Shown: positions 6,811 through 38,766 of the stretch, one piece after another
Position numbering within the stretch: position 1 is the first letter of the stretch
Layout: every line of letters begins with the position of its first letter
DNA from: Clostridia bacterium
GTDB lineage: Bacteria; Bacillota; Clostridia; Oscillospirales; CAG-272
NCBI GenBank assembly: GCA_017472695.1
Contig: JAFUOQ010000012.1
Coordinates: 1-47,016 of the forward strand
Length of the DNA: 47,016 nucleotides
Direction: 5' to 3'
The notes under the pieces: generated by a model
The model's database searches: none
Seen by the model: only the letters and a program-made list of their open reading frames with translations
Told to the model about the DNA's origin: nothing
Translations under genes and position numbers: made by a program

Positions 6811-8211
6811 ATGAAAAGAATATTGACTGCTTTTTCCGTGATTTTATGCTTGATTTTCGCTTTTTCACTTACTTCATGTGGGGACAAATCAAACGATGAT
6901 AATGGAGAAAATCAAAATACTGCCGTAATTATGCTATACTTAAATGGTGGTAGCTTGTCAGAGGATGGGCAAACAAAATATGTTTTAGAGCTGGACTCAA
7001 GCCTTAAAACCTTGGAAATACCAACAAAAGAGGGATATCTTTTTAATGGTTGGAAGGTGAATGGAGAATTTGTTTCATTTCCACATACAGTAACAGGTGA
7101 TGCTGTTTTTGTTGCTGAATGGAAAAGCATAAAGGCTGACACTGATACCGATATTGAAACTAATACAGATACAGACACAGAAACAAATACAGATACCGAA
7201 ACTAATACTGAAGCTGAAACCAATACAGATACCCAAACCGATACAAGCACTGATACTAGTGCCGATGCCGATGTAAATGTAGAGGAGTGCGAGCACAATT
7301 TCGATAATTGGGTAGTAACTGTGCGCCCAAACTGTGCTGGTATTGGGGAGGAAGCAAGAACCTGTTTGATTTGTGGCAAGGTAGAAACAGCGGTTATCAA
7401 TGACGAAACAGGTGGAATCTGTAATTACACCTCTTGGGTTGTAGCGAAAACAGCCGGATGCCTGGACAAGGGCTTAAACGTTCGTATTTGCAAGGTGTGT
7501 GAGAGCGTAGAAACAAGAGAAATTTCAACAATTACACACGAGGAATCTGATTGGACAATTACAACAGAGCCAACCTGCCTTGAGGATGGAGTTGAAACCT
7601 GCAACTGCCGTTGTGAGCAAACAAGAACAGCAAAGGCTCTCGGACACAACATAGAGACAGCCCCGGGAGAAGCACCTACAGAAACAAGTGAGGGCATTAC
7701 ATCTTACTGGACATGCACTAGATGTAAAATTGAGGGTGGAGACGAAATAGTAGGAAATCTTTCAACTGTTTCAAATGTAGCCTCTGGTGCAATATATTCA
7801 CACAATGCAACTGATTATTGGGCTTTTGACCCTAAATGTTTATATGACGGCAAGGAGGGGCATGGTACACGTTCACCAAAGGGTGGTAACTATTCTATCT
7901 TTTTGGACTATGAGCTTGAACAATATGTAACAACATTTAAGCTAAAATGCAATGGCGGAGGAACACTTTCCTCAGGCTCTACCGATCTTGTGTATAATAT
8001 TAAAAACATTTCTATTAATTTTTACAGTGTTAATGGCGAAATGGTATATACTACAGGGAAAACCGATGTATCAAGCTCGGAATATATTGAGTGCGAAGTA
8101 AATGAATTTGTAACAAGAATTGAAATTCAAATATTTGGTGGTAGTCATGGTGGAAGTGAGTTCTTGTGGGAGCTATATGTAATGGCACCTACAACTTACT
8201 CAAGTAAATAA
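6811..8211 (+). CDS. Surface lipoprotein with B-repeat, Thr-rich linker, Cys modules and discoidin-like domain
   Basis: The start is the ATG at 6811, which follows AGGAG; the frame stays open upstream but has no signal there. The 466-residue product has a lipoprotein signal ending in LTSC (Cys23), so it should be anchored outside the membrane. Residues 38-105 form an InlB-type B-repeat (YLNGG ... GYLFNGWKVNGE ... FVAEWK). Residues 110-150 are a Thr linker of TDTDIETNT type. Residues about 155-305 hold Cys-rich modules (C-x2-C pairs with W and H). Residues about 318-466 look like a discoidin or F5/8-type beta-sandwich (YWAFDPKCLYDGKEG). The architecture suggests surface or carbohydrate binding. 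No enzyme motif is visible. The neighbour at 8353 shares the plan. Confidence 0.85.
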   Translation: MKRILTAFSVILCLIFAFSLTSCGDKSNDDNGENQNTAVIMLYLNGGSLSEDGQTKYVLELDSSLKTLEIPTKEGYLFNGWKVNGEFVSFPHTVTGDAVFVAEWKSIKADTDTDIETNTDTDTETNTDTETNTEAETNTDTQTDTSTDTSADADVNVEECEHNFDNWVVTVRPNCAGIGEEARTCLICGKVETAVINDETGGICNYTSWVVAKTAGCLDKGLNVRICKVCESVETREISTITHEESDWTITTEPTCLEDGVETCNCRCEQTRTAKALGHNIETAPGEAPTETSEGITSYWTCTRCKIEGGDEIVGNLSTVSNVASGAIYSHNATDYWAFDPKCLYDGKEGHGTRSPKGGNYSIFLDYELEQYVTTFKLKCNGGGTLSSGSTDLVYNIKNISINFYSVNGEMVYTTGKTDVSSSEYIECEVNEFVTRIEIQIFGGSHGGSEFLWELYVMAPTTYSSK

Positions 8212-8231
8212 AATTCGACAAAAATTACAAA

Positions 8232-8258
8232 AAGCAGGGACAAAAACCCCTGTTTTTT
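8232..8258 (+). terminator. Terminator after the 6811 lipoprotein
   Basis: A CAGGG / CCCTG stem around an A-rich loop, followed by TTTTTT, about 20 bases after the stop codon. Confidence 0.7.
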
Positions 8259-8291
8259 ATATTATTTGTATAAAACAACCATCTTTTTGTG

Positions 8292-8320
8292 TTGACAAGT
8301 AATATAAAAAATGATACAAT
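8292..8320 (+). promoter_or_regulatory. Near-consensus promoter for the 8353 lipoprotein
   Basis: TTGACA at 8292, a 17-base spacer and TACAAT at 8315, 33 bases before the ATG, with a GGAGG site at about 8340. The two lipoprotein genes are thus transcribed separately. Confidence 0.8.
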
Positions 8321-8352
8321 AAAGGGGAAGAAAAAAATCGGAGGAATATACA

Positions 8353-10764
8353 ATGAAAAACAAGCTTTTAGTTTTATTGTCTTTGATTCTTTGTTTATCA
8401 ATGATTTTTGTGCTTGCATCATGTGGTAGAAGAGAAGAACCCGACACTGATACAGAGACTGAATCAGTAACAGAAACAGAGACAGAAACAAACACAGAAA
8501 CAGAAACGGAGTCTGATACTGAAACAGAAACAGATACTGAAACAGATACCGAAACTGAAACAGAAACAGAAACAGAAACCGAGATCCCAGAGTGTGTACA
8601 GCACACTTATGGTGAGTGGACTGTTGTAAATGCAAAGACATGTAGCACAGACGGTCTTGAAAAGAGAGTATGCTCTGTATGCTCACACGAGGAAACACAA
8701 GCTATCCCAATGGGTCACGATGAGGGAAGGTGGGAAACAGTTACCGAGCTTACATGTACTCAAGACGGCTTGAACATCAAAAAATGTGGTGCTTGTGGCG
8801 AAGAGCTGGATAGAGAAGAGTCTATAGCTGATGGACACAAGTGGGGTTCATGGAAGGAAACACAAAGGCTCACCTGCGAGCAAGATGGTATTTCCACAAG
8901 AATATGTAATGTATGTGGTGAATCTGATACTAAAACAGAAACGGCACAGGGTCACAAATGGGGGGCTTGGGAAACAATTCAAACCCTAACATGTACTCAA
9001 GATGGCATCCAAACACAAACCTGCCAAAACGACGGCTGCGGAAAAACAAACACAGCAACGTTAACCGCTTCAGGTCACAAATGGACTGAATGGGGTATTG
9101 GTTGGGATGATGAGCCAAGTGCACAAGAGCCTACCTGTACAGAAGAGGGATATTTAGATAGAGTTTGTCCTGAATGTGGCGAAGAAGAGAGAAAAACAAC
9201 CCCAATAATTCCTCATGCACTAGGTGAATGGATTGTTCCAGACGGAGTTACTTGTGAAACAGGCGGTACAGTTACAAGAAGCTGTTCGACTTGTGAAGAT
9301 TATGTAGAAGAAAAGACTGTTGAGGCAGGTGACCATGTTAATGTGGTTTATGTGGGTGCAAAGGAAGCAACCAAGGAAGAGGACGGCTCAACAGGTGTTG
9401 AAAAATGTCTTGCTTGCGGTAAGGTGATTTCAACTGCAAAGGTTATTAGATTTGTCAATGTTGCTTTAAACGGAACAGTTACAACTGATTCTAAATTCTG
9501 GGCATCAACCTCAGCTAACATTCAAAAGATTATAGATGGCAATCGCGAAACAGGCGTTTGCAGTAACTCATCTGTAACAAGCATTACAGATACCATCACA
9601 TTCAATGAATCAACAGGTATAGTAGAGGTCGTTTTAGTAGTGAACGGCAAGGGTACTACAACCGAAGGCAGTAGCTACTCTGAAGTGACAAACAATGATT
9701 ACAAAATTATGTTTGTTCTTTATGACGAAAGCGGTAAAGCGGTTTATACCTCCCAAGAATACAGCACGCTTGATAAGGTAGAAATTTCAGTAGATATCAC
9801 ACTTCCAGAGGGCGTGTCAGTAAAGAGCATGAAGGTTACTCGTTTCAAACAGGCCTATGTAAACACAAGCTATCTATGGGAGGTTGAGGTTTATAACAAA
9901 GAATATCTCGATCCTTGTGAGGCAGCGGGTGGTCACGCATGGAGCGCATGGCAAACAACAGAGCCTTACTGCACACAAGATGCTCTTGTAGACGGCTTGG
10001 AAACAAGAACCTGTTCAACTTGTGGCGCGGTTGAAGAAAATGCTTTGCCAGCTTCACACACTTGGTCAGAATGGAATATTTTAGGTATTGTATGTGGCGT
10101 TGGCGGAACAAAGACAAGAGAATGTACCTCTTGCGGTAAGGAAGAAAGCGAAACTGTTGAAGCTGAAGGACATGTAAATGTAGTTCTTCAAGGAGCTAAA
10201 GAGGCAACATTAGAAGAAGCTGGATATACAGGTGATAAGGTTTGTACAGCTTGTGGTGAAACCGTAGAGGCGGGAGCAGTAATTCCCAAGCTTGTAAACT
10301 ATGCGCTTGATGCAACTGCATCAACCAACTCAACATTCTGGGCGGTTGTTGGAAATGGCTCCTCCTGGGCACCTAACACGATTCCAAACATTAATGATGG
10401 AGATTTGTCGACCGGCGCTAATACAATGGATGGAAATCTTCGTGATATTAATTTTGTTCTGACATGGGAATCGGCTGTTGGTGTTGATAATATTGTAGTT
10501 GTATGTAATGGTACAGGTAACCTTGGATACAAGGGAAATGTAACAGATACAAACTATAATTGTGCTATTACAATAAATGTATATGACGAAAGTGGAAATG
10601 TCATTAAAACATTAAGTGATACAACTGCCGACAAGACTGAAATCAATATTGATTTTGAAGAAACTGTATCTGTTTCAAAAATAGAGGTTTCATTGTCAAC
10701 ACTCTATAATTCAGCAGAGGGTGCTATATTTGAAATTATGGCAATCGGCTCCAGCGCTGAATAA
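8353..10764 (+). CDS. Large surface lipoprotein with Thr-Glu linker, tandem Cys modules and two discoidin-like domains
   Basis: The 803-residue product has a lipoprotein signal ending in LASC (Cys24). Residues 31-78 are almost pure Thr-Glu/Thr-Asp repeats. Residues about 81-368 carry five or six Cys-rich modules with the pattern H-x-W-x2-W, then C-x3-G, then C-x2-C-G. Residues about 369-517 form a discoidin-like beta-sandwich (NVALNGTVTTDSKFWAS), residues 518-645 hold further Cys modules, and residues 646-803 a second discoidin-like domain (NYALDATASTNSTFWA). The first discoidin domain aligns by eye with the second and with the end of the 6811 protein. Carbohydrate or surface binding is plausible by analogy with F5/8-type domains. 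The Cys modules could bind metal or form disulfides. No catalytic motif is visible. Confidence 0.85.
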   Translation: MKNKLLVLLSLILCLSMIFVLASCGRREEPDTDTETESVTETETETNTETETESDTETETDTETDTETETETETETEIPECVQHTYGEWTVVNAKTCSTDGLEKRVCSVCSHEETQAIPMGHDEGRWETVTELTCTQDGLNIKKCGACGEELDREESIADGHKWGSWKETQRLTCEQDGISTRICNVCGESDTKTETAQGHKWGAWETIQTLTCTQDGIQTQTCQNDGCGKTNTATLTASGHKWTEWGIGWDDEPSAQEPTCTEEGYLDRVCPECGEEERKTTPIIPHALGEWIVPDGVTCETGGTVTRSCSTCEDYVEEKTVEAGDHVNVVYVGAKEATKEEDGSTGVEKCLACGKVISTAKVIRFVNVALNGTVTTDSKFWASTSANIQKIIDGNRETGVCSNSSVTSITDTITFNESTGIVEVVLVVNGKGTTTEGSSYSEVTNNDYKIMFVLYDESGKAVYTSQEYSTLDKVEISVDITLPEGVSVKSMKVTRFKQAYVNTSYLWEVEVYNKEYLDPCEAAGGHAWSAWQTTEPYCTQDALVDGLETRTCSTCGAVEENALPASHTWSEWNILGIVCGVGGTKTRECTSCGKEESETVEAEGHVNVVLQGAKEATLEEAGYTGDKVCTACGETVEAGAVIPKLVNYALDATASTNSTFWAVVGNGSSWAPNTIPNINDGDLSTGANTMDGNLRDINFVLTWESAVGVDNIVVVCNGTGNLGYKGNVTDTNYNCAITINVYDESGNVIKTLSDTTADKTEINIDFEETVSVSKIEVSLSTLYNSAEGAIFEIMAIGSSAE
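8429..8587 (+). repeat. Low-complexity Thr-Glu-coding repeat
   Basis: A run of short units of the type ACAGAA/ACTGAA/ACAGAT encodes the Thr-Glu/Asp linker of the 8353 lipoprotein. Similar tracts lie at about 7137-7260 and 14671-14812 in the two neighbouring surface genes. Such hexamer-like repeats can change length by slippage while keeping the frame. Confidence 0.8.
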
Positions 10765-10770
10765 ACAATC

Positions 10771-10801
10771 AAAAAAGCAACCGAGCGATCAGTTGCTTTT
10801 T
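10771..10801 (+). terminator. Terminator after the 8353 lipoprotein
   Basis: A ten-base stem (AAAAAGCAAC / GTTGCTTTTT) around a ten-base loop, starting six bases after the stop codon. Confidence 0.8.
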
Positions 10802-10813
10802 GAAATTAATAAT

Positions 10814-10844
10814 AAAACAGATGCCTGTTTTAGGCATCTGTTTT
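10814..10844 (-). terminator. Terminator after the fused ABC transporter
   Basis: A long perfect stem (AAAACAGATGCCT and its complement) around a short loop, four bases beyond the ABC transporter stop. The flanking T runs on both strands mean it may also stop readthrough from the plus side. Confidence 0.85.
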
Positions 10845-10848
10845 TTAA

Positions 10849-14345: not shown

Positions 14346-16061
14346 ATGAAGAAAATAGTTGCAATTTTTATGCTGGTTATTATGCTGCTTGGCATTGTTG
14401 GATGTGCAGGCAGAACGGGTAATACTGACACAGGTAATTCCCAAGAGCTTGTAACAGTATGGCTCGATTTACAGGGTGGTGAGCTAACCTCAATGTCCAT
14501 AGAATTTGAATGGAACAAGGGCGAAGAACTTGAGTTTTTACCAGACCCAACTAAAGAGGGCTGCGAATTTCTTTGCTGGACAGTTAATGGAAAGCCTGTT
14601 TCCTTCCCGTATGTTGTGGAGGAGGATATACTATTCACCGCTTATTGGCAGGGAGCTGATGGTACAAATACCGACACAGATACGGAAACTGAAACCAATA
14701 CAGAAACTGAAACCAATACAGAAACTGAAACAAACACAGAAACCGAAACAAACACAGAAACCGAAACAAACACAGAAACCGAAACTAATACTGAAACAGA
14801 AACAGAAACAGGCTCGTACGTTCCACCATTGCTTGACCACGACACCATTAATTATGAGGCTAGATATTCAAACGATAAAAAGAAGATTTATTATGGAAGT
14901 TATTCAGTAAAGGTGCCAATAATAACCGATTATTACAACAACTATGATGCTGCGTTTTCAATGACCTTCGATGATGGTTACCATGTGCAAACAGGCTATA
15001 ATGTCTCAAGTGTGTTTGAAAAATACGGCTGGCGTGGAACAATGATGCTTTGTCCTTCGATGGTTGACGATAAGGTTGATGAATGGAATAAGGTTTTTGA
15101 TATGGGATATCTTGATGTTGGTTGTCACGGCTGGGATCATATTCACCCACACGAAATAACTGACGACCAAATGGAGCATGAGATTAAAGAAGCAATTGAG
15201 TTTTTAAGAGAAAAATTTCCAGGACAGGATGTTCTTACCTTCGCAACTCCTTTTGCTCAAATTACAGATTCTTATGAGGAATATTTAAAGCTCTACACAA
15301 TTTGTAACAGACTTGAATCAGCGGGCACCCCTGTTTTCCTTGGAAATGACGAATATAATCTATATAGAGTTAATTCAACATCGATAAACACATCTAAGCT
15401 TGTGGAGGATCCTAATTTTCCAGACGACCCAACCAAACGTGTTGTTAGTCCTGCGATTGAGACAAAAATTGATGATGCAATTAATGCAAATCAATGGTTC
15501 GTGGCTCTTTATCACTGCGTAATGGACAATGCTGTAAATAGCACAGATATGGAAAAAACCTCATTTGAAAAGCACTGCGAATGGCTTTATAACAACTATG
15601 GTGATAGAGTTTGGTTCGCATCATATCAGGATGTCGCATCGTATGCGGCTCAAAAGCAAACGGCGACAATTGAATACACCGCGTGCGACAACGAGTCAAT
15701 GACTTATATTGCAAAGGTTGACAAAAATTATGGTCAAGAAATGACACTTAAATTTTATATGCCATTCTTTATTGACTCTGCATATGCAGTAATAGATGGG
15801 GAGACACATTACCTAACTATTGAAAAAGAACCAAATACAAGAGTTGCTTACATCAATACCGAGATTAGTGAGGAAGGTACTGAAATCAAGATTTATATGG
15901 GCGGAAACGACAAGTACTTTAACAACTGCACTCACAACTATGTTGAAAATAGCGTTGTTTCTCCAACAGAAAATAGCTTTGGTTACACAGAAATGATTTG
16001 TACAAACTGTGAGCACACATATAAATGTGCTTATACAGAATATGCGGAAGATGAAGAATGA
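14346..16061 (+). CDS. Lipid-anchored polysaccharide deacetylase with B-repeat and C-terminal Cys module
   Basis: The 571-residue product has a lipoprotein signal ending in IVGC (Cys20). Residues 34-103 form an InlB-type B-repeat similar to the one in the 6811 protein, and residues 108-155 a Thr-Glu/Asn linker. A NodB-type polysaccharide deacetylase follows (about 185-410). Its metal-binding motif TFDDG has Asp209-Asp210, and the second motif has His261, His265 and His267 in CHGWDHIHPH, so it looks active. The usual motif-3 Arg is replaced by FATPFA, which resembles variants of this family. Residues about 525-571 end in one divergent Cys module (C-THNY ... CTNC). Likely substrates are peptidoglycan or another N-acetylated surface glycan. 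The fusion to shared surface modules is the notable feature. Confidence 0.87.
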   Translation: MKKIVAIFMLVIMLLGIVGCAGRTGNTDTGNSQELVTVWLDLQGGELTSMSIEFEWNKGEELEFLPDPTKEGCEFLCWTVNGKPVSFPYVVEEDILFTAYWQGADGTNTDTDTETETNTETETNTETETNTETETNTETETNTETETNTETETETGSYVPPLLDHDTINYEARYSNDKKKIYYGSYSVKVPIITDYYNNYDAAFSMTFDDGYHVQTGYNVSSVFEKYGWRGTMMLCPSMVDDKVDEWNKVFDMGYLDVGCHGWDHIHPHEITDDQMEHEIKEAIEFLREKFPGQDVLTFATPFAQITDSYEEYLKLYTICNRLESAGTPVFLGNDEYNLYRVNSTSINTSKLVEDPNFPDDPTKRVVSPAIETKIDDAINANQWFVALYHCVMDNAVNSTDMEKTSFEKHCEWLYNNYGDRVWFASYQDVASYAAQKQTATIEYTACDNESMTYIAKVDKNYGQEMTLKFYMPFFIDSAYAVIDGETHYLTIEKEPNTRVAYINTEISEEGTEIKIYMGGNDKYFNNCTHNYVENSVVSPTENSFGYTEMICTNCEHTYKCAYTEYAEDEE

Positions 16062-20606: not shown

Positions 20607-23312
20607 ATGAAATACGAAAACAACTATTATAAGGACTACGACCTTGGCAATTTGCCAAAGGATTCCGTAAAGGAGTTAGAGAAATTATCTCTTGAGAGCG
20701 CAAAAGAGGGCATTGTAATGCTAGAGAATAAAAACAATGTTCTTCCGCTAAAAAAAGGTGACCACGTGTCTATTTTTGGCAGAATTCAACGCGAATACTA
20801 CAAGAGTGGAACAGGTTCTGGTGGACTTGTTAATGTTAAATATGTTACTAACATTGTTGACGAGCTTAAAAAATTTGATGATATAAAAATTAATGAAGAG
20901 CTTTTGGCAGCTTACGAGGAATGGAAAAAGGAAAATCCATTCGATAAAGGGCAGGGCTGGGGCGGTGAGCCTTGGTGCCAAAAGGAAATGGAAATTGATA
21001 TTGACCTTGTAAAAAAAGCCAAAGAATTTGGTGATAAGGCTATTGTTGTAATCGGTAGAACCGCGGGTGAGGACAGAGATAACTCTGCTGCCGAGGGTAG
21101 TTACTTGCTTTCAAAGGGCGAGCAGGAGCTTCTTGCCAAGGTTTCAAGCGTTTTTGACAAGGTAATAGTGATTCTTAATGTTGGTGCTATAATTGATATG
21201 AAATGGGTAGAAAAATACAACATTTCATCTGTTTTGTATGTATGGCAAGGTGGTATGTGTGGTGGCAAGGCTTGTGCTGAAGTTTTAATGGGCTATTCCC
21301 CATGTGGTAAGCTTGCAGATACTATTGCATATGATATTTCCGACTATTCATCAACTGCAAACTTCGGTGGTGAGGAAAAGAATATCTATAAAGAGGATAT
21401 TTATGTGGGATATCGTTACTTTGAAACCTTTGCACCCGAAAAGGCACTATATCCATTTGGCTATGGTCTATCATATACAACCTTTGATATAAGGGCAAAT
21501 GCTTGTGTCGATGGGGATAAGATTTGTGTTAAAGCAACAGTTGAAAACACAGGCAATTGTGATGGTAAAGAGGTAGTACAAATCTACTTTGGAGCACCTA
21601 ATGGCAAGCTAGGAAAAGCAAGCCGAGAGCTCATTGCTTATGCTAAAACAAAAATGCTAAAAAGTGGCGAAAAAGAGACACTCTCCCTTGAATTTTCTAT
21701 AAATGATATGGCTTGCTACGATGATTCGGGAGCTACCGGTAACAAAAACTGCTATGTACTTGAAGCAGGTCAATACATTATTTATGTTGGAAAATGTGTA
21801 AGATGCTGTGAGCCCGTTTTTGTTTATATGCAAAACGAAACAGAGGTGGTAAGAAAATGCGTTCAAGCATTGCCACCAAAGATTGCATTTGATAGAATGA
21901 AAAATGTAGGTGGCAAAATTACATATGAGCCAGCTCCAACTATTGAATATGACCTAATTGAAAGAATAAATAATAACCTACCAGCAGAAATTAAATACAC
22001 AGGCGACAAAGGAATTAAGCTTGAGGATGTAAGAACAGGCAAAAATACAATGGATGAGTTTATTGCTCAATTGACACCCGATGAGCTTTGCTGTTTAGTA
22101 CGTGGTGAGGGCATGAACTCACCAAAGGTTACCCCGGGTACAGGCTGTGCATTTGGCGGTGTAACTGAGAAATTAATTTCCTATGGTGTGCCAATCATTT
22201 GTGGTACTGACGGCCCTTCTGGTATTAGAATGGACAGTGGCTTGCAAGCGACAAGTATGCCGAATGGCACATGCTTGGCTTGTACATTTAATGACAAGCT
22301 AGTTTCAGACCTATATTCACTTGAGGGTGTCGAGATGACCGCATATGAAATAGATGTTATTCTTGGCCCCGGTATCAACATTCACAGAAGCCCACTAAAT
22401 GGTAGAAACTTTGAGTATTTCTCTGAAGACCCATATTTAACAGGAAAAATGGCTGTTGCTATTTCCAAAGGACTCAATCGTGTTGGCGTTTATGCAACAA
22501 TTAAGCACTTTATGGCTAATAGCCAAGAGTGGAAACGTCACACAGGCGATTCAGTTCTTTCTGAAAGGGCACTTCGCGAGATTTATGCGCGCCCGTTTGA
22601 AATAGCAGTAAAAGATGGCGAGGTTAAGTCAATAATGACCGCATACAACGCAGTAAATGGCTACCATGCAGCATCTAACTATGACCTTACAAAAACTCTC
22701 CTTCGCGATGACTGGGGCTATGACGGATTTGTAATGACTGACTGGTGGGCACACATAACCAATTTGGACGGCACAACCTCAACAAGCGATTTTGCTACTA
22801 TGGTTAAATGCCAAAACGATATTTATATGGTTATGGAAAATGCAAAAAACAACCCAGATAACCTAAAAGCTAGTCTTGAAAGCGGCTATTTAACAATTGG
22901 AGAGCTACAGGTTTGTGCAAAGCGAATTTGCGAATTTGCAATGACTACCCACGCATACGAAAGATTTAAAGCAAACGGATTTAAATATGATATTGAAGCA
23001 CTAGATACATCAAATATGGAAGTAAGATACGAGCTTTCGGATGTCGCTTTAGGTCAAGCATATGAGCTTCAGTTTACAAAGGGTGGCAAGTATGTAGTAG
23101 AGATAGAGTTTACAACTCCTCAAAGCGAGCTTGCTCAAATCAAGATTCCTTTAAAGCTAAACAAAACCGATGCCTGTACCTTTGTTGCCAAGGGAACAAA
23201 TGGAAAGACAGGCACAGTTAAAGCACAGGTGTCAATTATGCAATGGAAGCAAAGCCTAACCTTTACATCGAGCGACGAGGTTGAAATTAAAAAGGTTAAA
23301 TTCCTATTATAA
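20607..23312 (+). CDS. Glycoside hydrolase family 3 enzyme with permuted domain order
   Basis: A probable beta-glucosidase or related exo-glycosidase of 901 residues. The usual order is reversed. The alpha/beta sandwich that normally comes second is at about residues 25-290 (ESAKEGIVMLENKNNVLPL, later LFPFGYGLSYT-like LYPFGYGLSYT). A fibronectin-III-like domain follows at about 300-410, and the TIM barrel is last (about 490-800). The predicted nucleophile is Asp712 in FVMTDWW, where the common motif is SDWW. KHF and the NGRNFEYFSEDP active-site segment are intact. No signal peptide is present, so it should act inside the cell on imported oligosaccharides. Permuted GH3 enzymes are known from rumen Ruminococcus and Butyrivibrio. 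It has its own promoter. Confidence 0.92.
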   Translation: MKYENNYYKDYDLGNLPKDSVKELEKLSLESAKEGIVMLENKNNVLPLKKGDHVSIFGRIQREYYKSGTGSGGLVNVKYVTNIVDELKKFDDIKINEELLAAYEEWKKENPFDKGQGWGGEPWCQKEMEIDIDLVKKAKEFGDKAIVVIGRTAGEDRDNSAAEGSYLLSKGEQELLAKVSSVFDKVIVILNVGAIIDMKWVEKYNISSVLYVWQGGMCGGKACAEVLMGYSPCGKLADTIAYDISDYSSTANFGGEEKNIYKEDIYVGYRYFETFAPEKALYPFGYGLSYTTFDIRANACVDGDKICVKATVENTGNCDGKEVVQIYFGAPNGKLGKASRELIAYAKTKMLKSGEKETLSLEFSINDMACYDDSGATGNKNCYVLEAGQYIIYVGKCVRCCEPVFVYMQNETEVVRKCVQALPPKIAFDRMKNVGGKITYEPAPTIEYDLIERINNNLPAEIKYTGDKGIKLEDVRTGKNTMDEFIAQLTPDELCCLVRGEGMNSPKVTPGTGCAFGGVTEKLISYGVPIICGTDGPSGIRMDSGLQATSMPNGTCLACTFNDKLVSDLYSLEGVEMTAYEIDVILGPGINIHRSPLNGRNFEYFSEDPYLTGKMAVAISKGLNRVGVYATIKHFMANSQEWKRHTGDSVLSERALREIYARPFEIAVKDGEVKSIMTAYNAVNGYHAASNYDLTKTLLRDDWGYDGFVMTDWWAHITNLDGTTSTSDFATMVKCQNDIYMVMENAKNNPDNLKASLESGYLTIGELQVCAKRICEFAMTTHAYERFKANGFKYDIEALDTSNMEVRYELSDVALGQAYELQFTKGGKYVVEIEFTTPQSELAQIKIPLKLNKTDACTFVAKGTNGKTGTVKAQVSIMQWKQSLTFTSSDEVEIKKVKFLL

Positions 23313-26305: not shown

Positions 26306-29300
26306 ATGAAAAAGAAAATTTTATTTAGCTCAATTTTGCTTGCTGTGGTCCTTTCGTTGGTTGCGGTTTTGACCTCCTGCTTAGGGCCAAGCGAGTGTGA
26401 GCATTTATGGAACGAGGTTTATTGCGAAGACCCCTTGTGCGAAAAGCCGGGTATTATCGAGCGTAAATGCTTGAACTGCGGCAAATTTGATATCGTAGAG
26501 ATCGACCCACTGGGACACGAGCTTGTAGATGTAGTGGGCTATGAGCCAACTTGTACCGAGGACGGCTTCGGTAAAGGCGTTCGCTGTGAAAGATGCGATT
26601 ATGAAATATTAGGAGAGTACATAAAATCCGAAGGACACGAATTTTTAACAGTTCCGGGTTATGCGGCAAGCTGTACAAAGGATGGACTTTCCGATGGCAA
26701 GCGCTGCAAAAAATGCGGATATGAGACAATTGAGCAAATCGTGATTGGTGCAAAAGGTCACGAATGGGTTACAGATTACGGCTATAACGCAACCTGTACA
26801 GAGGACGGACTTTCCGACGGCACTCATTGCTACGTATGCGGCACGGTCGGAGAGATACAAGAGGTTATTCCCTCAACGGATCATAGCTACGTTACGTCAT
26901 TTGGATATGAGTCGACCTGTACCGAGGCAGGATATTCAGACGGTACTTACTGTGAGTATTGCTATACTGTAGGCGTTCCACGAAAAGAGCTTCCCTTAAA
27001 GGAGCATACTTCGGTTGTTGATGAGGGCTATGCACCCACGTGTACAGAAAACGGTCTTTCCGACGGCTCGCATTGTGAAATTTGTAATGCAATAATTACA
27101 GAGCAAACCGCTATAGAATATAACGGACATAAGGTGATCTCTGTCGGCGGCAAAGCGCCAACCTGTACTGCCACAGGTAGTACTGCTGGCAAAAAATGTG
27201 AAACGTGCGGAATTATAATTGTCGACTCATTTGTAATGCCAAAGGCAGAGCATAGCTTTGAAAATGGCACCTGTACCGAATGTCAGCTCACAATGTCAAT
27301 CGGACTTACATATGTAAAGAACGATTCCGAAGACGGATATATAGTAACGGGTATAGGCTCTTACGAGGGTGATGCGATTGTTATCCCCGATACGTATGAG
27401 GGTCTCCCTGTAGTTGCAATTGGAGAGGGCGCGTTTAAAAATGAAGCAATAACAAGCGTGACTCTTGCAGGAAACATAATAACTATTGAAGGCAGCGCAT
27501 TTGAGGGCTGCACATCACTTGCAGAGGTAAATCTGCCAAATAGCGTTACAGACGTGCGTGAAAATGCCTTTTACGGCTGTTCTGCTCTTGAATACGTAAG
27601 CTGTGAGGACTTTTCACAAAGCAACGAGTGGACAGACGGTTGGAATGGTGAAGAGAGTATTACTATAAAATCCGATAAAAAGAATGGGCTCAGCGCATTC
27701 GAGGTTTATCTCCTCGCTGTGCAGACAATGAAAAACGACATTGACCGTTATATAATGAGCACAATTCAAAAAATGAACGTTACTCAAGGTGAATACTCAC
27801 AAAGCGTAACGAATCAGCAATATTATGAATATGCCGGCGGCGAGCTTTATTCTCATATTTACGACGGAAAAACAAATACAGAAATGAAGGTGTGGTACAT
27901 TGACGAGGTGTCATATTTCATTCAAAACGGCAATTATTATAAAATGACTGCCAGCCCTGAATATTTCAGAGATTTTGAAATTCAAGTGAAGTCCACGCTG
28001 AATGTATTTGAAGAAAAATATTTTGAAAATGCAGAGTTTTACAGAAAAACTGACGGCACATATAATCTTACCCTTGTTATGAGTAATGAGCATATGGCGG
28101 AGCTTATAGAAACCGTTTTAGGTATGGATCCCACATCCGTTACTATGACCTCCTGTGTTTATAGCTATGATTTTGATGCGGACGGATATCTTTCCGCTAT
28201 GTATGCTGACGCAGAGTATTCTGTAACCGCGGGCACACAAACCGCAATAGGAGTGCTTGACCAGGATACCGTGTTTACAGAGGTTGGCACTTTGAAAAAT
28301 GTAACACAGCCTGTTGGCAGCTTTACCGACGTTACGAATACATCGTGTTCGCACCCCTCGACAAAGCAGGTGACAGTTCCAGGATATGAGGCAACCTGTA
28401 CGAAAGACGGTCTTACAGACGGTATTTATTGCTCTTATTGCTACGGAACAGTTAGGGCTTCACAAAAAATAGCGTCAAACGGACATAGCATTGAAAACGG
28501 CAAATGTACAGTATGTGGTATGCTTGAAAACCAAAGCAGCGGCTTATATTATGAAATTTCAGAGGACGGAAAAACCGTTTACCTTGCGGGTATTGGTAGC
28601 TTTGAGGGCGTGGACGTTGTTCTTCCAGAATATATATTTGGTTTACCTGTTACAGGCATTAAGGCAGGCGCATTTGACGGAGCAAGCGTTACAAGCATAA
28701 CCATACCAAAAACTATGACCAAAATAGAGGACGGCGCGTTTGACGGTTGCGACACCTTAACAAAGGCAACGCTTCCTGTTTGGCTCGTTTCCTCATTGCC
28801 AAATAAGTTTAATAACGTAACCATTACCGATGGCACAACGATTTCTAAAAACGATTTTTCAGCTCTTACTGAGCTAAAAATTATCACACTTCCAGAAAAT
28901 ATAAACGAAATCGAAGACGGCGCATTTGAAAACTGCACAAAGCTCTCAATAATTTATAACTATTCAAAGCTCAATATCGTCGCAGGCAACAAAACTGCAA
29001 ACGGCGGAATAGCTAAAAATGCAATAGAAGTGTATACCAATCCCTCATATGCCACGGAATATATTGCGGTCGGTGACTTCCTCTTTACCGAGAGCTCCAG
29101 TGAATATATTTTGAATCGTTATATAGGTAATGACAAAATTATAGTTTTGCCAGACGGCGTAAACGGCACGACTTATAGCATATCTCGCAGTGTATTTGAA
29201 GATAATACAGAAATAGTAAGCATAACAATACCTAATGGTGTAGCTTCAATTGAAAACGGAGCGTTCTCTGGTTGTTATAAGCTTGTAGAGATGTATGATC

Positions 29301-31967: not shown

Positions 31968-31980
31968 TATATTTTTAAAA

Positions 31981-32481: not shown

Positions 32482-32504
32482 AAAACCTCCTTTAAAAATC
32501 AGTA

Positions 32505-32532: not shown

Positions 32533-32535
32533 AAA

Positions 32536-32922: not shown

Positions 32923-33942
32923 TCAGTCATTTTCTTCTTTTTTTCGACTTTTGATATTCGCCAAAGGATTGTTGTCGACTGCATCCTGCATACCTTGATT
33001 AGATACATGAGTGTATATTTGAGTAGTGTTTAGTTGCTCGTGCCCCAAGATTTCCTTTAAAACTCGCACATCAACCTTTCCAGTCTGGTACATAAGGGTT
33101 GCAGCAGTGTGGCGAAGCTTGTGAGTAGAGTAGTGCTTATAGCCAAGCCCTGCTAATGATAGGTACTTATAAACAAGCCATTGAACGGTTTTGTTGCTAA
33201 TCCTTTTATATTGCTTACTGATAAATAAAGCGTTAGTGTTAATTGCCTTATATTTTTCTCCTCGCCTGATTTCCAGATATCTATAAAGCGCATCGCGGCA
33301 AGCATCGTTTAAATAAACAATGCGCTCCTTGTTGCCCTTACCAATAACGCGAAGGGAACAAAATTCTCTGTCAATATCATTTAAATTGATTCCAACCAGC
33401 TCTGAAAGACGCATACCACAGTTTAAAAACAGAGTGATAATCGCGTAGTCGCGCTCCTTTGTTTTTGAGTTCTTGTCATTTTCAATGGCTTCAAGCAAGG
33501 AAATGCTTTCGTCCATCGAGAGGTGCTTAGGCAATGATTGCTTTTTCTTTGGCGCTTCCATATCTATTGCAGGATTTTTGTCCATAAGCCTGCGCTTTTG
33601 GCAAACAAATTTATAAAAAGCCTTGATAGCTGAAAGCTTTCTAGACCTAGCCGCAACGCTATTTCCTCTCTCTGTCGAAACATAGATGAAAAAGTCGTAG
33701 ATTTCTTCAGTTGAAACAGAGGTTATAAACTCAATATTCAAGCCGGAAATATCAATAGCCGTGAATTCATCGGAGGAAAATTTAATTTTGTGTCGTTTAG
33801 CATAAACATATCTAAAAAAGAGCTTTAAATCCGAAAGATATTCGTCAACAGTCTTTTGAGAACAGCCTTGGATAGTCAGCTTGTATGATGCAAAATCACG
33901 CACAAGTGCTGGCATAATTTCTATAGAGAAAGTGCTTGACAT
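32923..33942 (-). CDS. Tyrosine recombinase, XerC/XerD family
   Basis: A 339-residue site-specific recombinase. The N-terminal half is a SAM-like core-binding domain, somewhat longer than in XerC/D because of an insertion near residues 50-75. The catalytic half has Arg in GMRLSELVG, His and Arg in HKLRHTAA, His in LGHEQL and the nucleophile Tyr in TTQIYTHV. An AAGGAGG site precedes the start. There are no integration or excision genes beside it, so a chromosome-dimer resolution role is more likely than an integrase role. I see no dif-like site in the window. Confidence 0.9.
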   Translation of the reverse strand: MSSTFSIEIMPALVRDFASYKLTIQGCSQKTVDEYLSDLKLFFRYVYAKRHKIKFSSDEFTAIDISGLNIEFITSVSTEEIYDFFIYVSTERGNSVAARSRKLSAIKAFYKFVCQKRRLMDKNPAIDMEAPKKKQSLPKHLSMDESISLLEAIENDKNSKTKERDYAIITLFLNCGMRLSELVGINLNDIDREFCSLRVIGKGNKERIVYLNDACRDALYRYLEIRRGEKYKAINTNALFISKQYKRISNKTVQWLVYKYLSLAGLGYKHYSTHKLRHTAATLMYQTGKVDVRVLKEILGHEQLNTTQIYTHVSNQGMQDAVDNNPLANIKSRKKEEND

Positions 33943-34029
33943 AAAACCTCCTTAACTAATAGATTTTATACCATTTTAACATATATTAGAGTAAATTTGT
34001 ATCAAAAATATAAATTTTTCAAAACATTA

Positions 34030-34058
34030 TTGAAATAAATCGCACTTTCTTATATAAT
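34030..34058 (+). promoter_or_regulatory. Promoter for the 34093 membrane protein
   Basis: TTGAAA at 34030, a 17-base spacer and a consensus TATAAT at 34053, 34 bases before the ATG. Confidence 0.75.
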
Positions 34059-34092
34059 AAACATATATCGTAACAAAATAAAGGAGAAAAAT

Positions 34093-34692
34093 ATGGAAGA
34101 AGAGAGCAAGGGCTTTGGCGCTTTTTTTAGCAAGAATTTTGATATAATATCCAAGCTTTTTGTATATCACATTGCAATGTGCGTGTTTGGACTTGTTGTT
34201 TCTATCGCTGTTGAAATGGTGGCAATCCAATTTAGCGGAGATAACGATATTACAACCTTGAGCGTGTTTACATATATTGCCGCTGCCTTTGGCGCACTTG
34301 TGTATTTAGGCCTTATATATGTTTGTATGTGGGAAAAGGGCGCATCTGACAGGATTAAGATTGTCGGCGGCAGAATGAAGGAAAATAACTTCAAGGGCTT
34401 GCTTTTCTGGCTAATCGCAAATTCGATTAATATATTTATTATATTAAATGTGTTTATTCTATCATTTATTCCCTCAGCAGGAAATGTTCACGGCGTTTTA
34501 TCAATTGTTACAATGTTCTATAATGCAATGTACTTGCCCGAGCTTGTTGCTATGAGCAATATTACATGGTTATATTTTGTTGTATTAATTCCCGGCGCTG
34601 TTATGGCAATGGTTTCTTATATTCTTGGAATCAAGGGGTTTAAGTGCATCTTCCCAGAGCCAAAATCGGAGCGAAACAGAAAACTCAAATAA
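34093..34692 (+). CDS. Four-helix membrane protein of unknown function
   Basis: I do not recognise this 199-residue protein. It has four hydrophobic segments (about residues 22-45, 55-80, 105-130 and 155-180), a short acidic N-terminus (MEEES) and a basic C-terminal tail (KSERNRKLK), which suggests both ends are cytoplasmic. No enzymatic or transport signature is visible. It has a consensus promoter, a good GGAG site and its own terminator, so it is likely a real and well-expressed gene. Confidence 0.8.
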   Translation: MEEESKGFGAFFSKNFDIISKLFVYHIAMCVFGLVVSIAVEMVAIQFSGDNDITTLSVFTYIAAAFGALVYLGLIYVCMWEKGASDRIKIVGGRMKENNFKGLLFWLIANSINIFIILNVFILSFIPSAGNVHGVLSIVTMFYNAMYLPELVAMSNITWLYFVVLIPGAVMAMVSYILGIKGFKCIFPEPKSERNRKLK

Positions 34693-34696
34693 ACTT

Positions 34697-34726
34697 AAAA
34701 AACGGACACTCCTGTGTCCGTTTTTT
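34697..34726. terminator. Bidirectional terminator between the membrane protein and PAP2 gene
   Basis: A stem CGGACAC / GTGTCCG extended by A-T pairs, with T runs on both strands, between convergent genes. Confidence 0.9.
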
Positions 34727-34727
34727 G

Positions 34728-35708
34728 TTATCTATCTGTTTTTATTCGTTTTCTGTTGGCTCTTTTTTCTTCGATTTTAAGCTCTAATTTTTTAAACCAT
34801 TTGAATGAAATAGGATAAACGTCAATTACAAAAATAACAACCAAGCCATATCTTAATGCACGCGCGATTGTGTTTGCATCAAATATTGCATTTAATGGTA
34901 TTTTTAGCCCTTCAAGTAAGCCAAGGACTAGTATAAGACCAATGCCAGCTTTCAAAATTTGTGTGTACCATTTGCCACTTTCGTTGAATTTAACATATTT
35001 TCTTTCAATGGGAAAGGCAATTAAAACTCCAACAAGAGCACCAAATATTAGATACGAATTTTTGAGTGCCGAGATATAATTGTGCATTTGGTCACTTGGA
35101 AGGCTTGATGGATCGAAAATAAGCTCCATATAAATTAAAAAGGCAAGAGCAATAATTGACATAACCCCTAGGAAAATAAACATACCGAATTTTGATTTAT
35201 ATGCCTTATACATAAGTGGCTTTGTTACCACTATTACTAAAATTGCAAAGAACACAGAGAAAAACACATCAAGAGGTGTGTGAACTCCCAAATACATTCG
35301 AGAAAAGGGAACAATTATGCAAATAACAAGTGCAATTGCCTTAACCCAAGAGCTTTTGGAGATTAGAGAAATCGTTCCAAAAATTCCTATTGAGTTTTGC
35401 GTATGCCCACTTGGAAAAGAGAAGCCACTAGCATCTGGTATAGCCTCCGGAACCGCCACAAAATTCGGGTTCAAATCCCAAGGGCGCAATATCCTAAATG
35501 ATATTTTTAAAAATTGGTTTGCAACCGTTCCTAAAAAGCCGATTGTCAAAAGTAGATATCCATCTCTTTTGGAAAAGCACCAAAACACAATAACGGCAAC
35601 GGCGATAAAAGCCATCTCTCCGCCAAGCTCTGTTACTAAAAGAAAGAATTTGTCAAGAGATGGGGTTCTTAGATTTGATAAAAATTCAAGAAATTGCAAA
35701 AGGCACAC
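34728..35708 (-). CDS. PAP2-family membrane phosphatase
   Basis: A polytopic membrane protein of 326 residues in the lipid phosphatase (PAP2) family. The three catalytic motifs are present: KISFRILRPWD (K-x6-RP), FPSGHTQNS (PSGH) and SRMYLGVHTPLDV (SR-x5-H-x3-D). Members release phosphate from undecaprenyl pyrophosphate or phosphatidic acid on the outer face. The C-terminal third carries further helices beyond the family core and ends in a basic tail (EKRANRKRIKTDR), so it is longer than a minimal UppP-like PAP2 protein. The physiological substrate cannot be told from the sequence. Confidence 0.88.
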   Translation of the reverse strand: MCLLQFLEFLSNLRTPSLDKFFLLVTELGGEMAFIAVAVIVFWCFSKRDGYLLLTIGFLGTVANQFLKISFRILRPWDLNPNFVAVPEAIPDASGFSFPSGHTQNSIGIFGTISLISKSSWVKAIALVICIIVPFSRMYLGVHTPLDVFFSVFFAILVIVVTKPLMYKAYKSKFGMFIFLGVMSIIALAFLIYMELIFDPSSLPSDQMHNYISALKNSYLIFGALVGVLIAFPIERKYVKFNESGKWYTQILKAGIGLILVLGLLEGLKIPLNAIFDANTIARALRYGLVVIFVIDVYPISFKWFKKLELKIEEKRANRKRIKTDR

Positions 35709-35751
35709 CTCCTTTACCTATTTAGTATATCACACAAAGTTAATATTTTCA

Positions 35752-35782
35752 ATAAAAAACAAGTCCAAGTTACCTTGGACTT
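35752..35782 (-). terminator. Terminator after the 35800 lipoprotein
   Basis: An AAGTCCAAG / CTTGGACTT stem with a four-base loop, followed on the minus strand by GTTTTTTA. Confidence 0.8.
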
Positions 35783-35799
35783 GCTTTTATTATAATTAA

Positions 35800-38766
35800 T
35801 TATTCAAAAACAACAGTGAATGATTCGTTGCTGTAGTTTCTAATATCAAAGATATAGGTGCATCCTGCCTCGAGGTAAACCTCAAGCTTAAAGTGCCCAT
35901 TCATGCCACCATCATCATTTGAGTCAATAGTTGATTTATAACCATAATCATCTAACTCACTAACGGAAACCCATGTATCACAGTATTCTGCGTCTGACTT
36001 AGAATATATAGTGTAATATCCACTGGATGTAGCATAATAAGTGAATGAAGCATAATATGATGAGCCCGAATAATATTCAAGATCATAGTCGCTTTCTATG
36101 CCTACAGTGAATTCAATCTCCTCGTGTCCACAGTCGGAACAGGATTTGTAATACTCATATCCATCATTAACGGTTTCGCCAATTAATCTATAGCCTGAGT
36201 TGAAGCTATGACTGTTTGTGTAGTATTCGATATAGCTATCACCACATTTGGAGCAAGTATAATACCTGTAGCATATGTCAAGACATACGTCAGAGGTTGT
36301 GGATTTTGATGAGTCAAGCTGATAGTAGTGTCCACCGTCGTACCAGATGTCAAAATATTTGTAGTTACCGGATACGTTTTTGAAATATAGGTCAATGGTT
36401 GTGGAAGAAAGGTCGGCATTTGATAAAAGCGCATCGTAATCAACGAGTGCCAAAATCTCATCTTCTGACAACGAGTATGAGGATGATACTTCATATTGCA
36501 CGTAAGTGCCGTAATCAGCATTTAATCCCACGTTATATATATCAATTCCGTTACATCCTGATTTATAAGCGGTGCTTGATACGTCTGTGCTGATTTTATA
36601 AACATCATAATAAACGTAATAAGTATATCCATAGTATGAGTCGTAAGAATTATTATAATAGTTATAACCATATACATAATAGCAGTTTTCGGCGCTGTTA
36701 TATACTATATCTGCCCCAAAATATTTTTCCTCAAGCAATGATAAAATATCGTCGTTTGTAAGAGTAGGCACCTTGTTAACGTTTTCCTTGATGGTTGCAA
36801 CAGCGGATGTATCTATTTCAACAGTTTCACCAGGAATCATTTCGAAGGTCAAATTCACGATATCCGATGTTATGGTGTATGTGTAGTTGAAATCCTTATC
36901 AGCAACAATGGAGATAGTTAGCTCAACATCCTGTGTCACCATATAAGTGTACTGACAGCTTAGACCCTTGAAAGCACCTGTTGAGTCGAAGCTCATAACA
37001 TATGAGTAGCTGTCCATTAGCTCGTCAATTTGAGCATCAATCATTTCCATCATTTCTTCAATATCTTCATTGCTAATTTCGTCATCAGAGTTAGACATAG
37101 CTAATTGATAGAATGTGCTTTCCTTTGCCATATCAATAATTGTTATAACCATTTCTTTAAGCTGTGCTTCAGCCTCGGCTCTTTCATTTACTGTGGTGCT
37201 TGGGTCATCCTCTGGTGCACCGAGTGAAACGAGCAATGCTTCCATAACAGTTAAGCCTGAAAGCTCCTCGTCTGTTAGCATAGTATAAATGTCAAAGCCC
37301 TCTGGGAGCTCCTCGCCAGTTGACTCGCTAATAAGCATTTCAAGAGTAACACCCTCTTGACCTGACACAATTACTAAAAGCTCATCAATAGCATCAAGCA
37401 ATGCTTCAAGGTCAACGCCTTGGTCAACTTGAATGTAGTTGAGAAGGTCGGCAACAGAGTATTCGTAAATAGCCTCTGAGGTGATGAGCTCTTCAATTTC
37501 AGCAAACGCGCCTTCTTTAATTATAATGTCAACCAATTCGGATATTGTTTTTCTGCCAAGAGCATCATTAACATCTTTATAGAAGCCATAGTTGATAGAA
37601 AGGTCATATGAGCCATCACTGTTAGTTGTTACAGAGATTAAAGCGCCAGCCAATTTTGAGAAGAGAGCATCTACAGCATTAACAGCTCCATCAATGTTAA
37701 CATCATCAAATTCTGGAGCGAATGAGTTGTTGAACCAGTTTTCAATATCAGGCATTAATGCTTCAGCCTCACCAAGAGCACCCTCAATTTCTGCTGTGTC
37801 GGTATTTCCAACAAGAGATAGCTTCATATATTGTGAAGCATCAGTCCCTGTGGAAGTGATATCGAGGTCACCTGAGGTGTAAGCATAGAGCCAATCATCC
37901 TCAATATAAAATGCGCAATTCACTTGCTTTGTAATGTCTGTTTCGTCAGCGACAGCATCAAGAACACCATGTCCGTAGCCGTACAATTTTCCATTTTCGT
38001 CAAGTGTTACGTAACCCTCGGCAACGTTTAAAGTGCAAACACCATTGGAAGATAAGTCGTATTCTTCATCTATGGTGATTTCAAGATCTGTAAGATAGAA
38101 GCCTACGGAATCGAATTCTGGAGCCTCAATTACAGGAGGTGTTTCGATTAAGGTTGTGCCACAAACAGTACATTCTGTAAGTCCCTTGTGACCTGTTTTC
38201 TCAGTTGTTTCGGTTTCTGTTCTTTCACAAGTGGAGCAGGTACGAGTCTTTTGACCGTTCTTTGTGCAGTCTGCTATAACAGTAACTCTCCATGAGCCCC
38301 AAGTGTGGTCAACTGCTTCACCTGTATAACGAGTTTCAACGTTGGAGCAAACAGAACAAGTACGTGCTTCCTCTACACCCTCGCAATATGCTTTACCTGT
38401 AGCTGCCCAATCAGAGTATGAGTGTGTGCCTGAAACACCCTCGGTGTTTTTGCGATTTTCGGTTGTGTTACATGTAGAGCAGGTGCGAGATTCGTCTTGT
38501 CCCTCGCAGGTAGCAGAGCCAACTGCTGTCCATTCACCCCAAGCGTGAGCATCTAATGATGCCGCATCGGTATTGAAGCGGGTTTCTGTTACTCCACAGC
38601 TATTACATGTGCGGATTTCGTTTTGACCCTCACATGTAGCATCGCCATTAGCTATCCATTCACCATACACGTGCTCACATTCTCCACAGGAGATAAGAGC
38701 AAATGAAAGGCAAGCAAGCATTAAGGCAACGCCAATAAGTAGGGCAATTTTCCTAATGTTCTTCAT
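35800..38766 (-). CDS. Large lipoprotein with Cys modules, Tyr-rich segment and C-terminal beta-sandwich
   Basis: The start is the ATG at 38766, which follows GGAGG; the upstream in-frame TTG lies in the ribosome site. The 988-residue product has a lipoprotein signal ending in LISC (Cys27). Residues 28-205 carry four Cys modules (WGEW ... ATCEG ... RTCSTC). Residues about 225-640 are a mostly acidic, unrecognised region with repeated helical stretches. Residues about 680-735 are unusually rich in Tyr and Asn (YNYYNNSYDSYYGY). Residues about 830-885 hold another divergent Cys-module pair. Residues 895-988 resemble a pre-peptidase-type C-terminal beta-sandwich (GYYTIYSKSD ... YIFDIRNYS). The function is unknown; the layout fits a surface adhesin or scaffold. 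Confidence 0.82.
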   Translation of the reverse strand: MKNIRKIALLIGVALMLACLSFALISCGECEHVYGEWIANGDATCEGQNEIRTCNSCGVTETRFNTDAASLDAHAWGEWTAVGSATCEGQDESRTCSTCNTTENRKNTEGVSGTHSYSDWAATGKAYCEGVEEARTCSVCSNVETRYTGEAVDHTWGSWRVTVIADCTKNGQKTRTCSTCERTETETTEKTGHKGLTECTVCGTTLIETPPVIEAPEFDSVGFYLTDLEITIDEEYDLSSNGVCTLNVAEGYVTLDENGKLYGYGHGVLDAVADETDITKQVNCAFYIEDDWLYAYTSGDLDITSTGTDASQYMKLSLVGNTDTAEIEGALGEAEALMPDIENWFNNSFAPEFDDVNIDGAVNAVDALFSKLAGALISVTTNSDGSYDLSINYGFYKDVNDALGRKTISELVDIIIKEGAFAEIEELITSEAIYEYSVADLLNYIQVDQGVDLEALLDAIDELLVIVSGQEGVTLEMLISESTGEELPEGFDIYTMLTDEELSGLTVMEALLVSLGAPEDDPSTTVNERAEAEAQLKEMVITIIDMAKESTFYQLAMSNSDDEISNEDIEEMMEMIDAQIDELMDSYSYVMSFDSTGAFKGLSCQYTYMVTQDVELTISIVADKDFNYTYTITSDIVNLTFEMIPGETVEIDTSAVATIKENVNKVPTLTNDDILSLLEEKYFGADIVYNSAENCYYVYGYNYYNNSYDSYYGYTYYVYYDVYKISTDVSSTAYKSGCNGIDIYNVGLNADYGTYVQYEVSSSYSLSEDEILALVDYDALLSNADLSSTTIDLYFKNVSGNYKYFDIWYDGGHYYQLDSSKSTTSDVCLDICYRYYTCSKCGDSYIEYYTNSHSFNSGYRLIGETVNDGYEYYKSCSDCGHEEIEFTVGIESDYDLEYYSGSSYYASFTYYATSSGYYTIYSKSDAEYCDTWVSVSELDDYGYKSTIDSNDDGGMNGHFKLEVYLEAGCTYIFDIRNYSNESFTVVFE

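What the first reader, a model, noticed from the sequence alone, without database searches (positions are those of the whole stretch)
6811..38766. A shared Cys-rich surface module used across four lipoproteins and a deacetylase
Modules of about 40-50 residues with the pattern H-x-W-x2-W, C-x3-G, C-x2-C(-G), ending in GH, occur in tandem in the 6811, 8353, 26306 and 35800 lipoproteins, and once, in divergent form, in the 14346 deacetylase. They always follow the lipid anchor or linker and are joined to different effector domains. The three Cys and one or two His could bind a metal or form disulfides. I know no functional assignment for this module. Spread over many genes with strong promoters, it looks like the common part of a surface system.
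Basis: partly seen in the sequence, partly recalled or inferred. Interest (0 to 1): 0.7.

Follow-up and report, generated by a model that had tools for sequence, protein, structure and literature searches.

The report
Metal-linked repeats in bacterial surface proteins
Many gut-type Clostridia build surface proteins with strings of a small repeat that very probably binds zinc, each repeat apparently borrowing one metal ligand from the repeat before it, so that the string can act as an adjustable spacer holding other domains off the cell.

Summary
Five window lipoproteins (the deacetylase is one) hold 32 copies of one ~40-residue unit, H1...C1xxxG...C2xxC3; none reaches a Pfam or NCBIfam cut-off, and reversed or shuffled controls give no hits. 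It is wider than reported: at least 17 open frames of this genome, 88 of 98 sampled genomes of the family, 180 of 295 of the order, 95 of 391 of the class, and a few plasmid and phage records. It is not wholly unassigned: in July 2025 the same module was modelled (AlphaFold3 only) as putative zinc-binding domains of the Thomasclavelia ramosa IgA protease. New here is a ligand rule: each site is H1+C2+C3 of one unit plus C1 of the PRECEDING unit. Many first units carry a Cys/His cap before H1, most last units lack C1, and caps reappear where the preceding C1 is missing. A hold-out met four of five stated predictions. DsbA and VKOR families were not found. In relatives of one protein the array shortens or gives way to a Gly/Ser/Asn linker, which favours a spacer. 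No structure could be predicted; metal content is untested. Not a dedicated "surface system".

The parts
6811..8211 (+). Lipoprotein gene (466 aa): lipobox LTSC, weak Listeria-Bacteroides repeat (below Pfam cut-off), Thr/Asp/Glu-rich linker, 4 module units, C-terminal unassigned domain
7282..7725 (+). Module array, 4 units (Cys in place of H1 in unit 2; unit 3 irregular; last unit without C1)
8353..10764 (+). Lipoprotein gene (803 aa): lipobox LASC, Thr/Glu-rich linker, array 1, unassigned domain, array 2, second copy of that domain
8593..9417 (+). Array 1: 7 units, N-cap Cys81, last unit without C1; 21 Cys = 3 per site
9916..10254 (+). Array 2: 3 units, Cys522 six residues before H1 (outside the four-residue cap definition), last unit without C1; 9 Cys = 3 per site
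14346..16061 (+). Polysaccharide deacetylase lipoprotein (571 aa): lipobox IVGC, deacetylase domain, one C-terminal unit
   Evidence: PF01522, E 1.7e-15
15927..16010 (+). Single unit C-x-H...CxxC, no C1
26306..30943 (+). Lipoprotein gene (1545 aa): lipobox LTSC, 8-unit array, BspA-type leucine-rich repeats, internal 2-unit array
   Evidence: PF13306, E 1.3e-122
26396..27283 (+). Array: 7 full units + short last unit (H-x6-CxxC); N-cap Cys31; 25 Cys for 8 sites (Cys40 extra)
28346..28516 (+). Second array: 1 full + 1 short unit, N-cap Cys681; 6 Cys = 3 per site
35800..38766 (-). Lipoprotein gene (ATG at 38766, GGAGG site): lipobox LISC, 5-unit array, unassigned middle domain, divergent C-terminal pair
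38161..38679 (-). Array: 4 full + 1 short unit, N-cap Cys34; 15 Cys = 3 per site
36130..36285 (-). Divergent pair of CxxC units that does not fit the ligand rule well

Best explanation
The module is a tandem metal-binding (most likely structural zinc) repeat that forms spacers in secreted and lipid-anchored proteins of Clostridia. Shown from sequence: each unit has H1, C1 and a C2-x-x-C3 pair; many arrays begin with an extra Cys or His just before H1; most end in a unit without C1; inside arrays a cap appears mainly where the preceding C1 is missing. Inferred: each site is H1+C2+C3 of unit n plus C1 of unit n-1 (Cys3His), so that metals sit at unit junctions and staple the units into a chain; an N-terminal Cys/His cap completes the first site and the last unit needs no C1. 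Inferred more weakly: the chain sets the distance of other domains (LRR, deacetylase, CotH by Pfam; CAP, SLH by eye) from the membrane or wall; unit number is free to change, and a disordered linker can stand in for it.
For: 591 adjacent unit pairs in 116 open frames: Cys cap in 2 of 541 pairs whose preceding unit has C1, in 16 of 50 without it (Fisher 8e-17; one pair per frame, median p 0.0018, 90th percentile 0.028). Mid units have C1 in 416 of 454; last units in 26 of 134, and in 7 of the 102 not followed by His. Hold-out, 38 new frames, 215 pairs: Cys cap after C1 1 of 191; last units without following His lack C1 in 29 of 30; mid C1 146 of 166; first caps 22 of 50. Deacetylase relatives: 5 one-unit forms have E,E,A,A,V at C1; 15 forms with more units have Cys (10) or His (5) there. 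Cys inside arrays of >=3 units: 1846 against 1816 predicted (3N-1); 57 of 98 arrays exact. One phage protein begins with tandem minimal C-x-H-x8-CxxC units. DsbA and VKOR families found in 0 of 19 genomes each. Printed AlphaFold3 models put metal sites of the same module at subdomain interfaces. Spacer: P0005 and its three relatives have 4+1, 2+1, 2+1 or no N-terminal units, the last with a Gly/Ser/Asn-rich linker.
Against: The hold-out missed one of five stated predictions: Cys cap where C1 is absent was 2 of 24, not >20%, both in one frame (His caps, counted afterwards, bring it to 7 of 24 against 3 of 191, p 9e-6). In the first set 7 of the 16 cap swaps come from one frame (L185) and one is a Cys-rich stretch in L183. 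75 of 140 first units show no cap in the residues tested. 'Last unit' without the His condition is a weaker signal: 26 of 134 and, in the hold-out, 11 of 45 have C1; those with a His following may be arrays split by my parser. The C-terminal pair of P0005 and extra Cys in last units of some deacetylase relatives do not fit. The one-unit deacetylases are one clade, so one event. The printed models give 2His+2Cys for four of five sites; I can reconcile the first and last sites of ZBD1 but not all. Rows are related, so Fisher values are optimistic. Other disulfide-forming families than DsbA and VKOR were not searched.
Confidence: 0.68

Rival explanations
1. Register-shifted site: C1, C2, C3 of one unit plus the His that opens the next (all three Cys of a unit act together).
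For: C1 and the following His covary strongly (phi 0.74 over 256 units), which this model also predicts; the cap swap between C1(n-1) and cap(n) does not by itself tell which CxxC pair takes part.
Against: It leaves N-terminal cap+H1 and the last unit's CxxC without partners, yet these are kept; single units C-x-H...CxxC (deacetylase) and minimal phage units are complete only in the other register.
Confidence: 0.12
2. Disulfide-bonded Cys-rich repeat, as in EGF-like modules.
For: Secreted, Cys-rich, three Cys per unit.
Against: No DsbA (PF01323) or VKOR (PF07884) match in the genome and 18 relatives, some of them incomplete, with control genomes ringing (no other oxidative family was searched); conserved His tied to the Cys pattern; the IgA protease authors report no disulfides in their experimental structures, which lack these domains, or in their models.
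Confidence: 0.06
3. Metal store or sensor: arrays bind exchangeable zinc, and the spacer role is secondary.
For: One site per CxxC would give about 30 sites in the five window proteins (by eye), and arrays reach 32 units.
Against: Absence of the array, with a low-complexity linker in its place, in one relative; Cys3His sites are typical structural sites (recalled).
Confidence: 0.12
4. Binding module: the repeats themselves recognise a glycan or protein, and the metal only folds them.
For: Conserved Trp positions; the IgA protease authors name protein binding as an alternative.
Against: Joined to several unrelated domains, with variable copy number and in one relative absent; in IgAse the ZBDs are dispensable and even hamper cleavage.
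Confidence: 0.15

Closest known systems
ZBD1/ZBD2 of Thomasclavelia ramosa IgA peptidase (PMC12237041; chain sequence in PDB 9qa6)
   Same: Same repeat by profile (E 9e-9 with A1; E 1.5e-10 with A3); three-stranded subdomains, metal sites at subdomain interfaces in AlphaFold3 models, suggested spacer or hinge.
   Different: Two to three units with mostly 2His+2Cys predicted sites; the window arrays run to 8 units with Cys3His expected. The parts of the paper I read (section 5 part 1 of 5, and term passages) state no repeat rule, no caps and no spread beyond IgAse.
Zinc ribbon / rubredoxin knuckles
   Same: CxxC(G) knuckle; weak profile hits to rubredoxins, TFIIB and ribosomal L32 (E 0.035-0.2).
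   Different: Those sites are closed within one domain (recalled); here the fourth ligand appears to come from the neighbouring unit.
Tandem C2H2 zinc fingers (e.g. designed Aart, 2i13)
   Same: Periodic Cys/His; profile hit E 1.6e-6.
   Different: Ligand order CCHH with a helix (recalled); judged similar composition, not kinship (inference).
Periscope proteins / SHIRT stalk repeats (PMC8201768, start of abstract in listing only)
   Same: Variable-number stalk that sets projection length.
   Different: Different domain; metal plays no part that I know of (recalled).

Membership tests
IgAse ZBD-type module | Sequence kinship to ZBD1/ZBD2 | tested here: met
   9qa6_A is the best hit of two profiles
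IgAse ZBD-type module | Three-stranded antiparallel subdomain | not testable with these tools
IgAse ZBD-type module | Metal sites at unit interfaces | tested here: inconclusive
   sequence rules point to it; no coordinates
Pfam / NCBIfam / PHROGs families | Match of the module to a family model (over the curated cut-off where there is one) | tested here: not met
   five window proteins; PHROGs, six proteins; one hit, to the signal and linker of P0002. Exception: HMBD (PF19335) scored over its cut-off for one 12-unit protein of the genome, but no single stretch passed
Disulfide-rich (EGF-like) repeats | Oxidative folding machinery | tested here: not met
   (DsbA and VKOR families only)
Disulfide-rich (EGF-like) repeats | Cys paired in disulfides | not testable with these tools
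   no structure or mass spectrometry
Zinc ribbon | Two knuckles giving four ligands within one domain | tested here: not met
   one CxxC per unit
Periscope (variable-length stalk) proteins | Copy number varies among related proteins | tested here: met
   (P0005 and three relatives, 32-37% identical)
Periscope (variable-length stalk) proteins | Length variation between strains of one species | not tested
   The genome search holds one genome per species; no strain series was compared

The most novel reading that the evidence does not exclude
A metal-stapled rod: because every site spans two units, the array folds and stiffens only when loaded, so zinc supply (for instance calprotectin-limited zinc in the gut) would set how far hundreds of Clostridia surface proteins reach from the cell, with Cys/His caps as built-in start and stop signals of the chain.
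Probability: 0.2. Interest if true: 0.75.

Novelty: new variant of a known kind. Interest (0 to 1): 0.52.

Why it matters
The repeat is in most of the genomes sampled here from this family and order, yet the window copies match no curated family; in the annotated plasmid and phage records seen, proteins under it are called hypothetical or InlB B-repeat-containing. A ligand rule with start and stop caps gives exact predictions (metal count = number of CxxC pairs; which Cys belongs to which site) that one purified array can test, and would let annotators mark these regions as metal-bound spacers rather than disulfide-rich or unknown sequence.

Tried and rejected
Zinc-finger hits (2i13 and others) were set aside as composition. 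The unassigned domain shared by P0001, P0002 and L173 (A4) was first thought discoidin-like; those proteins have no such Pfam match and the only structure hit was at chance level (E 0.49), so it is left unnamed. P0003 has no solved relative at E 1e-4 by phmmer. Weak matches in the phylum sample (short partial matches, several with in-frame stops) were not taken as copies. A viral-contig scan with the G069 array found nothing; one with the phage array found two contigs. Paper searches; in their listings only the IgAse paper clearly treats the module. A 'surface system' was rejected because the module sits in many unlinked genes with different domains.

Windows in the pair counts were widened once: one search took C1 at 7-16 residues before C2, at 5-17, after short units with C1 closer were seen. 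The hold-out used the definitions unchanged; its five predictions were noted beforehand. It is not fully independent: several hold-out genomes also gave frames to the first set, but frames sharing a 60-residue stretch with it were dropped.

Full report
What is there. The window (GC 38.7%) is the start of contig 5 of a 1.78 Mb genome, 90.65% complete. Its order also holds Pseudoflavonifractor sp. An44: genome G069 is 'same order' and its module locus is identical to that named record over 332 residues; so the host is a member of the Oscillospirales (order name recalled). Five genes carry the module. All five start with a signal peptide and lipobox by eye (LTSC, LASC, IVGC, LTSC, LISC). Partner regions are BspA-type leucine-rich repeats (26306 gene), a deacetylase domain (14346 gene), and regions without a family match over cut-off (6811, 8353 and 35800 genes; the 6811 gene has a sub-threshold Listeria-Bacteroides repeat).

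Is it more than chance. Twenty-six copies were aligned (A1): the G after C1 and both Cys of CxxC are invariant, H1 nearly so. A profile built from module copies hits 207 of 2683 open frames in the fetched loci and none of the same frames reversed or shuffled.

Scope. In its own genome A1 finds 72 places at E<=1. In nine fetched regions outside the window, 12 further open frames hold units (some weak), 10 of them with a lipobox by eye, so at least 17 with the window's five; weaker places on other contigs were not fetched. Nine of the twelve were scanned against Pfam: LRR_5 in three (one also CotH), Flg_new repeats in three (one also F5/8C and deacetylase), HMBD by summed weak stretches in one, nothing in two. 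Sampled genomes with a match: 88 of 98 in the family and 180 of 295 in the order (E<=0.001), 95 of 391 in the class (E<=1e-5); in the phylum 48 of 398 at E<=0.01, many of them weak partial matches. Six of 72,556 plasmid records match an array from G069 at E<=1e-4, with organism names Enterocloster, Monoglobus, Butyrivibrio and Subdoligranulum; nine of 50,697 phage records match, eight of them unclassified clones from human faeces. Phyla other than the window's were not sampled as whole genomes.

What is already known. A profile search of solved chains gives the T. ramosa IgA protease, 9qa6, at E 9e-9 (A1) and 1.5e-10 (A3). I read section 5 part 1 of 5 and term passages of PMC12237041. [quoted passage not shown] Of PMC12402451 I saw passages only; those on structure concern the construct 323-878, outside these domains. 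In the listings of my paper searches I saw no other paper that treats the module; subscription journals and preprints are not held.

The ligand rule. In 256 of 267 units anchored on CxxC (11 too near an end), C1 and the following His covary (phi 0.74), while H1-C1 is 0.31 and H1-H2 0.16. Most last units keep H1 and CxxC but lose C1. In 591 adjacent pairs from 116 frames, a Cys within four residues before H1(n) occurs in 2 of 541 pairs when unit n-1 has C1 and in 16 of 50 when it has not; the 16 come from 8 of 30 frames that have such pairs (7 of them from L185), the 2 from 2 of 111. In L185 the arrays have lost C1 throughout, and all 12 units of its three longer arrays begin CxH, CxxH or HxH (by eye). 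First units carry a Cys cap in 48 and a His cap in 17 of 140. This fits a site made of H1, C2, C3 of unit n and C1 of unit n-1, with Cys or His caps as substitutes. The opposite register explains the covariation too, but leaves the first cap with H1 and the last CxxC idle.

Hold-out. Five predictions were written down before 40 new regions were fetched. Of 47 frames 9 overlapped earlier ones; 38 were kept, 34 of which gave 215 pairs. Cys cap after C1: 1 of 191 (predicted <2%, met). Cys cap without C1: 2 of 24 (predicted >20%, not met). Last units without a following His lacking C1: 29 of 30 (>85%, met); mid units with C1: 146 of 166 (>85%, met); first-unit caps 22 of 50 (>35%, met). Counting His caps as well, decided afterwards, gives 7 of 24 against 3 of 191 (p 9e-6). 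Ten of the 24 have a His shortly before CxxC (the NHWHxC type), a variant also present in the IgAse array.

A natural experiment. Relatives of the deacetylase domain occur in 21 of 29 genomes of the genus, the window's included; 20 loci, one per genome, were read. Five end after one unit and have E, E, A, A, V at the C1 position; fifteen have a further unit and show Cys (10) or His (5) there. All 20 have the cap, H1 and CxxC. The one-unit forms are a single clade (100/99), so this is one event followed by drift (19 rows). Some last units here hold a Cys at another place, which the rule does not predict.

Stoichiometry and chemistry. Inside arrays of at least three units there are 1846 Cys against 1816 expected from 3N-1; 57 of 98 arrays are exact and 83 within one. 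In the window: 21 for 7 sites, 9 for 3, 15 for 5, 6 for 2; 25 for 8 and 14 for 4 are off by one or two (site assignment by eye). DsbA and VKOR families were found in 0 of 19 genomes each, the window's and 18 relatives, several incomplete. This argues for metal over disulfides; zinc rather than iron is inference.

Function. The middle domain of P0005 has relatives in 3 other genomes of 29 (32-37% identity): two have two full and one short N-terminal unit where the window has four and one, and the third has no N-terminal array but a Gly/Ser/Asn-rich linker. Arrays range up to 32 units. I conclude, with moderate confidence, that the array is a spacer. Against this, the divergent C-terminal pair of P0005 is kept in these relatives and does not fit the rule.

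What is not shown: fold, bound metal, surface exposure, and any role in binding.

Noticed in passing
L193:3-5600 (+) and L193:6480-10187 (+), phage record PV036458.1: Two large hypothetical proteins at the end of an Oscillospirales phage genome carry module units; the first also has tandem minimal C-x-H-x8-CxxC units, and that stretch is identical in two IMG/VR contigs.
   Followed up: partly
window 7705-8208, 9424-9909, 10279-10761; L173:1640-2740: A domain without Pfam match in the proteins checked is shared by the 6811 and 8353 lipoproteins and by another protein of this genome (A4).
   Followed up: partly
window 32923-33942 (-): Phage-type integrase gene between module-bearing genes; no prophage boundaries were sought.
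   Followed up: no
L196 and other loci: A variant unit type with an NHWHxC pattern (His shortly before CxxC in place of C1), which may use a His donor.
   Followed up: partly
L103 region, G669 contig 32: A 4814-residue open frame with twelve module matches in the capped listing.
   Followed up: no
window 20607-23312 (+): Glycoside hydrolase family 3 gene with the C-terminal domain ahead of the N-terminal one.
   Followed up: no
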